Origin: an uncultured Opitutaceae bacterium
Lineage (GTDB): Bacteria; Verrucomicrobiota; Verrucomicrobiia; Opitutales; Opitutaceae
Direction: 5' to 3'
Assembly: GCA_903862935.1 (NCBI GenBank)
Contig: CAIOZY010000025.1
Span: 94,579-158,578 of the forward strand
DNA: 64,000 nt
In this document: positions 57,905 to 61,172 of the stretch, in pieces
How positions within the stretch are numbered: position 1 is the stretch's first letter
Layout of the letters: each line of letters starts with the position of its first letter
The notes under the pieces: model-generated
What the model saw: only the letters and a program-made list of their open reading frames with translations
What the model was told of the DNA's origin: nothing
Databases searched by the model: none
Position numbers and translations under genes: made by a program

Positions 57905-58390
57905 ATGAATGCCAAAATCCGCCAGGCCGGCCCAGAGGATGCGCCGGCGATCCTCGAGTTGATCCGGCAACTCGCCGCCTTCGAGAACCTCTCCCATGAG
58001 GTGAAGGCGACCGCCGAGCGGCTGCGGCAGACCCTTTTCCAGTCCGATGGAAAGCCGGCTGCGGAGTGCATCCTGGCCTTCGCGGATGGAGAACTCGCCG
58101 GGTATGCGGTCTATTTCACGACTTACTCGACGTTCCTTGCGGAGCCTGGCCTTTATCTCGAAGACCTCTTCGTACGATCGGCAATGCGCAGGCGCGGAAT
58201 CGGCCGGGCACTTCTCCTCTACGTGGCGAGGCTTGCTAACGAGCGCGGATGCGGACGGATGGAATGGACCGTGCTTGATTGGAACCAGCCAGCGATCGAT
58301 TTCTACGCTTCACTCGGCGCACAAACACTCGCGGATTGGCGTGTCTGCCGATTGACCGGGGAAGCCCTGGCCCGGCACAAAGGTTCCTGA
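57905..58390 (+). CDS. GNAT-family N-acetyltransferase
   Basis: MNAKIRQAGPEDAPAILELIRQLAAFENLSHEVKATAERLRQTLF...LYLEDLFVRSAMRRRGIGRALLLYVARLANERGCGRMEWTVLDWNQPAIDFYASLGA. Confidence 0.93.
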   Translation: MNAKIRQAGPEDAPAILELIRQLAAFENLSHEVKATAERLRQTLFQSDGKPAAECILAFADGELAGYAVYFTTYSTFLAEPGLYLEDLFVRSAMRRRGIGRALLLYVARLANERGCGRMEWTVLDWNQPAIDFYASLGAQTLADWRVCRLTGEALARHKGS

Positions 58391-58847
58391 GAGCTAAGGC
58401 TGGAGAACCCGCCCGCAATCGAATCGGCGCCAACCCAGGAGGTTGCCGAGGTGGCGGCATATTAGAGCGAGAGGAGTCCACGTAGGGCGTCCGGTGCCGC
58501 AGCGGGCGGGGCTGCTGACAGGGATCGCAGCTTCATGCAACGAGTTTTCTCTGCCGCTCGATGCTGCGTTTGACCGTCCACTCTCGCCAATTCATTCCGT
58601 CCGTCGTCTTTGTCCCCTCGGCGTTGAGCCGGTTGGCCTAAGAGTGCCAACCGACACACGATCAATACCTAACTTGCGGCACCGTCAGAATCGGACCTCC
58701 GAGGGCAACCGTATGGGCCCTCCTTTGGAGGCCTTACGTAATCAGGGTGGGCTCTACTGCGTTTCCCCGCGTCTTCTCGCCACTTTCACGGATAGCTATC
58801 TTGCACTTATTATTGAATGCCAACTAGCCCCTCTTTCTTCCGATATT

Positions 58848-58976
58848 GGAGGCGCGGGTCGGAATCGGTCGTTTAGAGCCGTGCTGCAAGCACTTACATA
58901 AGACACTTTCATAGCTACCCAAGCTAAATCGTCGCCACTCTCTTACAACCCTTCTTAACTCGTTTGGTGTCCGTCT
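58848..58976 (+). repeat. Array repeat R1 (subtype A)
   Basis: GGAGGCGCGGGTCGGAATCGGTCGTTTAG...TGCAAGCACTTACATAAGACACTTTCATAGCTACCCAAGCTAAAT...CTTAACTCGTTTGGTGTCCGTCT. Related to R2-R4. Confidence 0.85.
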
Positions 58977-59032
58977 AAGGCGCCTGCCAATGCTGTATCG
59001 GTTCCCGAGCGACGAATGCAGCTTCTACACCC

Positions 59033-59449
59033 TTACCCCTCTGCGTTGAGGCCGCCGGACTTCACGGCCTGTTTCACGAGCGTCATCGCGACGTCGAGCT
59101 TCAGGTCCTCGAGTTTCTTGAAGTTGATGCAACTGCGGCCAGTCTTCACCTTGCCGAGCTTGGCAGCATTCTGCTCAACGAGGTAACCGCCCTTATCGGC
59201 GGCGCAGATGTGGAGGCTGTAGTAGTTTTTCCCCGCGGAGAGTCCGATCAAAAACCAGTCGCCCTCGCGGCCGCTGGAAGACCTGTAGTGATACTTGCCG
59301 TAACCGATGACGGGCGAACCCATCCCCATCATGATTTCGGGGGTGAGTTTGGGCACGGCCCTCCGAATCGCGGCGTGGAGCACGAGCAGCGCGGCCCGGC
59401 GATCGGCGGGGAGGCTGGCGATGTATTGGTCAGGTGTCGTGGATTTCAT
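59033..59449 (-). CDS. DUF1801-like protein
   Basis: MKSTTPDQYIASLPADRRAALLVLHAAIRRAVPKLTPEIMMGMGSPVIGYGKYHYRSSSGREGDWFLIGLSAGKNYYSLHICAADKGGYLVEQNAAKLGKVKTGRSCINFKKLEDL. Confidence 0.85.
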   Translation of the reverse strand: MKSTTPDQYIASLPADRRAALLVLHAAIRRAVPKLTPEIMMGMGSPVIGYGKYHYRSSSGREGDWFLIGLSAGKNYYSLHICAADKGGYLVEQNAAKLGKVKTGRSCINFKKLEDLKLDVAMTLVKQAVKSGGLNAEG

Positions 59450-59609
59450 AATGGCGAAAGGTTTTCCGGGTAGGTCGCCGCATTTCTTAGGGACGGGGCG
59501 GCGGCGGAAGCAGCCAACGCGAGCAACCGCCGCGCAGGCAAGCTCATTGGCGCGGCGGCGTCTGGCCGCTACCCGGGCGCCGAAGTTTGTTGCCCTAACA
59601 ACAAAAACA

Positions 59610-59748
59610 GGAGGCGCGGGTCGGAATCGGCCGTTTTTCGTCGCGTTTGCAGCCTCAAAATGGCGGTTTTCAGAGAGAACCAAGCTTAATCCGCCACTAA
59701 GCCTCCACTGCTAGTCTTAACTCGTTCGGTGTCCGTTTTGGTGTCCGT
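59610..59748 (+). repeat. Array repeat R2 (subtype B)
   Basis: GGAGGCGCGGGTCGGAATCGGCCGTTTTTCGTCGCGTTTGCAGCCTCAAAATGGCGGTTTTCAGAGAGAACCAAGCTTAATCC...CTTAACTCGTTCGGTGTCCGTTTTGGTGTCCG. Confidence 0.88.
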
Positions 59749-59841
59749 GCCCATTGGTTCCCGTGTGCCCCAATAGTTGAGGCGTTCTTCGGCCACGGCT
59801 ACGCCACACCGCTGACCTTGACATTTCGCTCGAGGCCTCTG

Positions 59842-60258
59842 ATGGGTGAAATCATGGCAAAGATACCGCAGGAGATACAAGAGTTCATAAAGGGCAAAAT
59901 GGCATGGGTGTCCACAGCTGCGCCGGATGGAACGCCAAATGCCACTCCCAAAGGATCCGTTCGGGTTATCGATGATGAACATCTGGTCTTCGCCGACCTA
60001 TTCTCCTGCAAGACCAGGGAAAACCTGAAAGCAAACCCGAAAGTGGCCATCACCGTTATAGAAGAAAAAAACCTTAAAGGCTATCAGTTGAAAGGTAACG
60101 GAGAAATGCTCACCGCCGGCCCTATTTTTGACGAGGTGGCGGAGCGAGTGAAGAAGGCTCCCCGGGTAATGCCTCCGCTTAAGTATGTGGTCAAAATTAC
60201 CGTGGACTCAATTTACGACCAATCCGTCGGGCCCGAGGCCGGCAAAAAGATCGTATAA
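59842..60258 (+). CDS. Pyridoxamine 5'-phosphate oxidase-like (FMN-binding) protein
   Basis: IQEFIKGKMAWVSTAAPDGTPNATPKGSVRVIDDEHLVFADLFSCKTRENLKANPKVAITVIE. Confidence 0.88.
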   Translation: MGEIMAKIPQEIQEFIKGKMAWVSTAAPDGTPNATPKGSVRVIDDEHLVFADLFSCKTRENLKANPKVAITVIEEKNLKGYQLKGNGEMLTAGPIFDEVAERVKKAPRVMPPLKYVVKITVDSIYDQSVGPEAGKKIV

Positions 60259-60339
60259 AAACCTCCTGGAGAGAATCGGGATTTAAGATCGACACGATTG
60301 CGCTTGGCGGGCGATTGAGACCCGGCTGAAGGGCCGTGG

Positions 60340-60476
60340 GATGGGTGGGGCGAACTCGGCCGTCTATCGTCGCATTGCAGGCACTTACATAAGTAACTTT
60401 CAGAGCTACCCAAGTAAAATTGCCAGCACTTCCCCACTACCCATCCTCACTCACTTGGTGTCCGTTTTGGTGTCCG
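60340..60476 (+). repeat. Array repeat R3 (subtype A, most diverged)
   Basis: GATGGGTGGGGCGAACTCGGCCGTCTATCGTCGCATTGCAGGCACTTACATAAGTAACTTTCAGAGCTACCCAAGTAAAAT...CTCACTTGGTGTCCGTTTTGGTGTCCG. Confidence 0.82.
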
Positions 60477-60604
60477 CTATGCAGGCAGCGGTCACCGATT
60501 TCAACCCGCGGACCTGTTAGATCCCAGCCTCCGTCCTCTTAGCCCGAGTTCCGCCGTCGAGGCTATGACCATCAGAGTTGCCGCAATACACGATGGTTAA
60601 GTCA

Positions 60605-60973
60605 TTAGACTTGAGCCATCGGTAGTTTCATTTCCACGCAGATGACGTGAAGATCCGTGATGCCGACATTTTCGAGCGTATGGGGGCCCAGTGCCAGAGT
60701 CCAAAGCACCTTCGGGGATTGCACGAGCGCCGGGACGGTTCGGCTGTCGAGAAGCACATCGCCGCGATCGTCCCGCCGCACAAACGAACTCCAGCTCAGG
60801 ATATAGAGCGCAGCCGGCCAGCTGTGGGTGTGAATGGGAGTCTTGCCGCCCGGTGCAATCCGGGTGTCGAGCACGCGCACGGCTTCATTCTCGAAAAGCA
60901 AAATGTGGTTCGCCGGTGCGGCGGCCAGCGCGTCAAGGTGCGCAGGCCAAGATTCGGAATCCGGTGAGTGCAT
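60605..60973 (-). CDS. Cupin-like small protein
   Basis: LLFENEAVRVLDTRIAPGGKTPIHTHSWPAALYILSWSSFVRRDDRG...WTLALGPHTLENVGITDLHVICVEMK. Confidence 0.75.
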   Translation of the reverse strand: MHSPDSESWPAHLDALAAAPANHILLFENEAVRVLDTRIAPGGKTPIHTHSWPAALYILSWSSFVRRDDRGDVLLDSRTVPALVQSPKVLWTLALGPHTLENVGITDLHVICVEMKLPMAQV

Positions 60974-60997
60974 GGGAATGTCCGCTCAACTGAAACT

Positions 60998-61138
60998 GGA
61001 GACGCGGGTCGGATTCGGCCGCTTATCGTCGCGTTTGCAGGGTCAAAATGGCGGATTCACAGAGTGAACCAAGCATAATCGCGACTACTCCTCCACCACT
61101 CAATTTAACTCGTTTGGTGTCCGTTTCGGTGTCCGTCT
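60998..61138 (+). repeat. Array repeat R4 (subtype B)
   Basis: GGAGACGCGGGTCGGATTCGGCCGCTTATCGTCGCGTTTGCAGGGTCAAAATGGCGGATTCACAGAGTGAACCAAGCATAATCG...TTTAACTCGTTTGGTGTCCGTTTCGGTGTCCG. Confidence 0.88.
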
Positions 61139-61172
61139 GTAGCAATCCACAACGCGATACTTCTGAACCACT

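What the first reader, a model, noticed from the sequence alone, without database searches (positions are those of the whole stretch)
57905..61142. Integron-like single-gene cassette array separated by four ~135-bp repeats without canonical attC boxes
GNAT(+) - R1 - DUF1801(-) - R2 - PPOX(+) - R3 - cupin(-) - R4 form a regular series. Repeat starts are at 58848, 59610, 60340 and 60998 (spacing 762, 730, 658 bp), with one unrelated small gene per interval in alternating orientation. Each repeat begins with a GGAGGCGCGGGTCGGAATCGGCCG-like block and ends with CTTAACTCGTTTGGTGTCCG(TTTTGGTGTCCG). I could not identify consistent RYYYAAC/GTTRRRY attC boxes. This looks like an uncharacterised cassette-type gene-capture arrangement.
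Basis: partly seen in the sequence, partly recalled or inferred. Interest (0 to 1): 0.85.

Follow-up and report, generated by a model that had tools for sequence, protein, structure and literature searches.

The report
Single-gene cassettes between tRNA-derived att sites
In an uncultured Opitutaceae (Verrucomicrobiota) genome, small accessory genes sit one by one between repeats that are attachment sites of a tRNA-targeting integrase family widespread in this phylum; it is not an integron, but is probably an integron-like way of stacking genes, although movement of these units was not shown.

Summary
The four repeats are real: a model trained without the window finds them at E 2e-31 to 3e-20, with no hit in 50 shuffles. 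They are not attC sites: no paired boxes, no fold, no covariation. Their first 20 bp (GGAGGCGCGGGTCGGAATCG) are the 3' end of tRNA-Cys; R1 and R2 match 20/20, R4 18/20, R3 14/20. The other ~120 bp is a conserved arm ending in GGTGTCCGTTTTGGTGTCCG. The same core-plus-arm occurs across Verrucomicrobiota, where relatives carry complete elements: core+arm, cargo, lambda-like tyrosine integrase, second GGTGTCCG arm, intact tRNA-Cys/Thr/Asn. So R1-R4 are distal attachment sites of tRNA-targeting integrative elements, and the intervals are integrase-less units (659-762 bp). Three genes are bracketed on both sides (DUF1801, PPOX-like, weak cupin); GNAT is not. Seven other integrase-less units under 2.2 kb were found, one (1.26 kb, TauE) with both arms next to tRNA-Cys. 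This genome has no copy of the integrase, two cores are decayed, no unit was seen twice, and the array is not joined to tRNA-Cys in the assembly. Known kind: tRNA-repeat-bounded cassettes of additive islands; new variant in lineage, integrase family, long arm and minimal tandem units.

The parts
58846..58976 (+). R1: attachment-site repeat, tRNA-Cys 3' core (58848-58867, 20/20) + distal arm, lineage A; second GGTGTCCG missing
59033..59449 (-). DUF1801 gene, cargo of unit 1 (R1-R2); gene plus ~140 bp upstream (59034-59588) is 92-93% identical to loci in G002 and G155 that have unrelated flanks and no R
59608..59749 (+). R2: attachment-site repeat, core 20/20 to tRNA-Cys, lineage B, GGTGTCCGTTTTGGTGTCCG complete
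59854..60258 (+). PPOX-like (PNPOx_N) gene, cargo of unit 2 (R2-R3), 50% GC against ~65% for the flank; 89% DNA match in G027 without R
60337..60478 (+). R3: attachment-site repeat, core decayed (14/20), arm lineage A
60605..60973 (-). weak cupin-like gene, cargo of unit 3 (R3-R4)
   Evidence: Cupin_2 E 0.003, below cut-off
60996..61137 (+). R4: attachment-site repeat, core 18/20, arm lineage B
57905..58390 (+). GNAT gene left of R1, not bracketed by a repeat on its left; probably flank
61173..62156 (-). ORF of 327 aa after R4, no family match; unit 4 is not closed by a repeat before the contig ends
62727..64000 (+). ISL3-family IS (transposase 62740-63948) at the contig end; last 141 bp identical to the start of contig C40

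Best explanation
R1-R4 are distal attachment sites (tRNA-Cys core plus distal arm) left by site-specific integration of elements that use a Verrucomicrobiota family of tyrosine integrases. Shown by sequence: the core is the tRNA-Cys 3' end; full elements in relatives have the order core+R arm, cargo, integrase, second GGTGTCCG arm, intact tRNA. Inferred: the integrase binds both arms, recombines the attP core with the tRNA 3' end, and each new integration pushes earlier ones away, giving a row of units that each start with a core+arm. In the window the units are minimal and non-autonomous (core + arm + one gene, no integrase, no second arm), so they would be moved in trans by an integrase of another element, like integron cassettes but at a double-stranded tRNA-derived att site. 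Two cores are decayed and no integrase is present, so this array is at least partly inactive now.
For: tRNA-Cys identity of the core. Complete elements: L025 has two in tandem at tRNA-Cys, with integrases, RDF-like proteins and Rep (PF23343), then a 0.93-kb unit with one 222-aa gene between two R repeats. L030 and many others have integrase - GGTGTCCG arm - intact tRNA-Cys, -Thr or -Asn. L183 (G217) has R - TauE gene - second arm - tRNA-Cys in 1.26 kb with no integrase, a complete minimal non-autonomous element. Of 26 closed units measured, 10 are under 2.2 kb without integrase, in 8 genomes, with unrelated genes (PIN, AbiEii, TauE, DUF1801, PPOX). R repeats in 26 of 252 family genomes and up to 10 per genome in other Verrucomicrobiota. 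The integrase model is lambda-integrase-like including the N-terminal region. Two interleaved arm lineages argue against simple local duplication. All four repeats share one orientation.
Against: No integrase of the family in this genome. No second arm before R2-R4, so the units lack half of the attP seen in full elements. R3 and R4 cores are decayed. The array is not shown to adjoin tRNA-Cys: C25 overlaps C40, next to tRNA-Gly, by 141 bp exactly. No R+gene unit was found in a second place; the DUF1801 and PPOX homologs elsewhere carry no R. No empty site was found. Several R repeats in relatives lie far from any tRNA-Cys.
Confidence: 0.6

Rival explanations
1. Fossil islands: full-size integrative elements integrated one after another, then deletions removed integrases, second arms and most cargo, leaving one gene per surviving attachment site. 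Same att sites, but never single-gene cassettes.
For: No second arms before R2-R4, decayed cores R3 and R4, no integrase in the genome. Relatives show partial stages: integrase fragments of 66-168 aa and partial arms in L180, L181, L104, L185 and L188. Spacings elsewhere run from 0.66 to 18 kb.
Against: Three successive deletions would each have to stop with exactly one intact gene and a nearly complete 140-bp arm. Other genomes show comparably small units, one with both arms intact and no integrase (L183).
Confidence: 0.25
2. Secondary insertion of genes between pre-existing R repeats by homologous recombination or other transposition, R repeats being only landmarks.
For: The DUF1801 gene plus promoter region is 92-93% identical in other genomes, one of another genus, with different flanks and no R, so the gene moves without R.
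Against: It would not explain why each gene is alone between two complete repeats, nor single-gene units with both arms at tRNA-Cys in another genome.
Confidence: 0.1
3. A true integron or CALIN with divergent attC sites.
For: Single small accessory genes in a row; typical cassette-like cargo.
Against: No RYYYAAC/GTTRRRY pair in any repeat, folding no better than shuffles on either strand, 0 compensatory pairs in 36 sequences, gene orientations alternate, and the repeat start is a tRNA-Cys 3' end.
Confidence: 0.01

Closest known systems
Additive flexible genomic islands with tRNA-3'-end repeats (Ca. Actinomarinales PMC7771536; Ca. Methylopumilus PMC10872708)
   Same: [quoted passage not shown] in Methylopumilus 20-bp tRNA-Lys repeats and islands from 330 bp (1 CDS) to 42 kb.
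   Different: Here the repeat is ~140 bp (core plus a conserved arm shared across a phylum), the integrase family is identified in relatives, and units of 0.66-0.76 kb stand three in a row.
Dehalococcoides ssrA-specific genomic islands (PMC3146451)
   Same: Tandem islands bounded by 20-bp repeats of an RNA gene 3' end plus conserved flank; 15 of 31 lack the integration module and may be cis-mobilizable.
   Different: Serine recombinases (DsiA/DsiB) and a tmRNA target there; tyrosine integrase and tRNA-Cys, and much smaller units, here.
Cis-mobilizable elements (CIMEs) formed by accretion (as discussed in PMC3146451)
   Same: Units bounded by att sites, without integrase, moved by the integrase of another element.
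   Different: CIMEs keep attL and attR; the window units keep only the core and one arm. L183 keeps both.
Tycheposons (as described in PMC10872708)
   Same: tRNA target, tyrosine recombinase, cargo genes.
   Different: Tycheposons are 4-200 kb; no single-gene tandem units are described in the passages read here.
Integrons
   Same: Works like one in outline: single accessory genes each with a recombination site, stacked in a row.
   Different: Double-stranded tRNA-derived att site instead of folded attC; integrase of another family; mixed gene orientation.

Membership tests
Integron/CALIN | attC boxes R'' (RYYYAAC) and R' (GTTRRRY) paired within each site | tested here: not met
   no pair in R1-R4
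Integron/CALIN | attC folds as a single-stranded hairpin, conserved by covariation | tested here: not met
   0 compensatory pairs, folding z between -1.6 and +1.0
Integron/CALIN | IntI integrase in the genome | not tested
   Only the tRNA-type integrase family was searched for in G000
tRNA-targeted integrative element (additive island) | Repeat equals the 3' end of a tRNA gene | tested here: met
   R1 and R2 20/20, R4 18/20, R3 14/20 to the genome's tRNA-Cys
tRNA-targeted integrative element (additive island) | Row of units lies beside the target tRNA gene | tested here: inconclusive
   contig ends in an ISL3 IS; overlap points to C40 (tRNA-Gly), while tRNA-Cys on C61 also abuts an ISL3 end. 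Met in relatives L025 and L183
tRNA-targeted integrative element (additive island) | Cognate integrase next to the same attachment site | tested here: met
   Met in relatives; absent from this genome
tRNA-targeted integrative element (additive island) | Presence/absence variation ending at the repeats | tested here: inconclusive
   relatives too distant, no syntenic empty site found
CIME | Both attL and attR kept, no integrase | tested here: not met
   Window units lack the second arm; met in L183
CIME | Mobilised by the integrase of another element | not testable with these tools
   Needs an experiment
Tycheposon | Element of 4-200 kb with tRNA target and tyrosine recombinase | tested here: not met
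   Units are 0.66-0.76 kb without recombinase; size from PMC10872708

The most novel reading that the evidence does not exclude
A phylum-wide integron analogue: a lambda-like integrase family in Verrucomicrobiota that captures and stacks single promoter-bearing genes as cassettes, each marked by a one-armed, tRNA-3'-end att site of ~140 bp, with tRNA genes serving as the entry platform.
Probability: 0.22. Interest if true: 0.8.

Novelty: new variant of a known kind. Interest (0 to 1): 0.52.

Why it matters
tRNA-bounded gene cassettes are reported in several aquatic bacteria, marked by short repeats of the tRNA end. Here the site is long and diagnostic (core plus ~120-bp arm), the integrase family is identified in relatives (more than 5,300 homologs), and complete and minimal elements can be compared. 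That makes the open question of how single genes become cassettes outside integrons testable in vitro, and gives a search model for such units across Verrucomicrobiota.

Tried and rejected
attC/integron: boxes, folding and covariation all negative. Rfam: only one insignificant match. Joining C25 to the tRNA-Cys contig through a shared 9-mer after the IS end: rejected, because C25 shares its last 141 bp with C40, where the IS end is followed by tRNA-Gly. Left-flank synteny with tRNA-Cys loci of the genus, using the histidine kinase: many paralogs, no synteny. Empty site for the L183 unit in its genus: flank gene not syntenic. Second-arm remnants before R2-R4: none beyond core-adjacent bases. 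Plasmid and phage records: no integrase homolog; eight IMG/VR contigs hold the 20-mer but no full arms and no integrase. A draw of 394 phylum genomes found R in only 7, with the tool's stricter filters, so prevalence outside the family is not well measured.

Full report
Observation. The window is the right end of contig C25 of a 3.35-Mb assembly. Four ~140-bp repeats stand at 58846-58976, 59608-59749, 60337-60478 and 60996-61137, all on the + strand. A profile trained only on copies from other public genomes finds exactly these four (E 1.8e-31 to 2.7e-20) and gives nothing in 50 shuffles. Three intervals are closed, each with one gene: DUF1801 (-), PPOX-like (+), weak cupin (-). GNAT lies outside. 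Spacings are 762, 729 and 659 bp.

What the repeat is. Searching the genome with R1 gave a 23-bp exact match on another contig, which is the 3' end of the only tRNA-Cys(GCA) gene found. The shared block is GGAGGCGCGGGTCGGAATCG; R1 and R2 keep all 20 bases, R4 18, R3 14 (counted by hand from the sequences printed; the automatic count in that call is shifted by one base). After this core the repeats leave the tRNA sequence and continue into a conserved ~120-bp arm that ends in GGTGTCCGTTTTGGTGTCCG.

The family. The 20-mer occurs in at least 118 stretches of the GTDB genome set, mostly Verrucomicrobiota. Two contexts appear. In one, the 20-mer ends an R-type arm that starts with a tRNA 3'-end core, as in the window. 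In the other it lies between a tyrosine integrase gene and an intact tRNA-Cys, tRNA-Thr or tRNA-Asn gene, within a second conserved arm. Locus L025 (genome G006, same genus; the same contig is listed as L097, an uncultured Opitutaceae MAG) shows both ends: tRNA-Cys, element 1 (6.2 kb), element 2 (7.2 kb, integrase, RDF-like protein, Rep PF23343), ended by an R repeat, then a 0.93-kb unit with one gene, then a second R repeat. So R is the distal end of an integrated element: core plus one attP arm. This is sequence inference; no recombination was assayed.

The integrase. Its closest solved folds are full-length lambda integrase and Tn1549 integrase (model mean pLDDT 74.8, pTM 0.48, so moderate). 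More than 5,300 homologs exist; those with organism names are Verrucomicrobia, Opitutaceae or Lacunisphaera. This genome holds none.

Small units. Among 26 closed intervals on fetched loci, ten are under 2.2 kb without integrase: three in the window and one each in L025, L230, L183, L240, L229, L241 and L239. Cargo includes PIN toxin, AbiEii, TauE permease and unknown genes. L183 (G217) keeps both arms and tRNA-Cys around a single TauE gene, exactly what a minimal non-autonomous element should look like. The window units lack the second arm. Loci were chosen because they hold repeats, so these are not prevalence figures. In the family, 26 of 252 genomes have R; in 42 R-bearing genomes reached, up to 10 copies occur.

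History of the array. The arms form two groups: R1, R3 and the extra copy on contig C22 (support 0.98), and R2, R4 with copies of G006 and G004 (0.85). The order A-B-A-B and 71-82% identity argue against recent tandem duplication. The DUF1801 gene with ~140 bp upstream is 92-93% identical to loci in one genome of the same genus and one of another genus, with unrelated flanks and no R: the gene moved recently, but its link with R is seen only here.

Position. The tRNA-Cys lies at the end of contig C61 beside an ISL3-type IS end; C25 also ends in an ISL3 IS, whose last 141 bp equal the start of C40, where tRNA-Gly follows. Whether the array lies at tRNA-Cys is therefore open.

Mechanism. Most likely the units came in by site-specific integration, the integrase acting in trans on core-arm sites and new units entering at the tRNA end (inferred, 0.6). 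The main rival is that they are the trimmed remains of full elements (0.25). Both share the well-supported step that R1-R4 are tRNA-derived attachment sites.

Known or new. Small cassettes bounded by tRNA repeats are reported in Actinomarinales (PMC7771536) and Methylopumilus (PMC10872708), and tandem integrase-less islands at ssrA in Dehalococcoides (PMC3146451). I found no paper on the Verrucomicrobiota family, within an open-access library. It is a new variant of a known kind.

Noticed in passing
L025:9850-10995 and 28 relatives: The integrase family has Ser (or Ala) where tyrosine recombinases carry the first catalytic arginine (box I GASQSDLA), followed by a Gln invariant in 29 of 29; the second arginine is invariant, and the last His (26/29) and the Tyr (24/29) are mostly kept.
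   Followed up: partly
L025:7802-8620 and 13067-13912: Both full elements encode a Rep protein of family REP_ORF2-G2P, so they may replicate as circles after excision.
   Followed up: no
L029:9884-10032 and 10269-10601 (own genome, contig C22): A fifth R repeat of lineage A sits between housekeeping-type genes beside a BrnT toxin gene, with no tRNA gene on the 19-kb stretch read.
   Followed up: partly
window 62727-64000, C40 start (L266), C61 end (L028), L035: ISL3-type IS ends lie about 10-40 bp downstream of tRNA-Gly and tRNA-Cys genes in this genome and a similar end lies beside tRNA-Cys in G012, as if these IS prefer tRNA 3' flanks.
   Followed up: partly
window 59034-59588; L255, L256, L257: A DUF1801 gene with its upstream region is a compact ~555-bp module at 88-93% identity in three other genomes with unrelated flanks; what moves it is unknown.
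   Followed up: partly
L192 (G215, single-contig genome), L182, L187, L189: Solitary R repeats, some with intact core, with no tRNA-Cys or integrase within the several kb read.
   Followed up: no
L226 (G005):840-2762: A weak tRNA-Cys core copy and the intact tRNA-Cys gene bracket 1.8 kb holding a HipA toxin gene, without the R arm.
   Followed up: no
window 61881-61962: ARAGORN calls a tRNA-Pro(CGG) inside a protein-coding ORF, probably a false positive.
   Followed up: no
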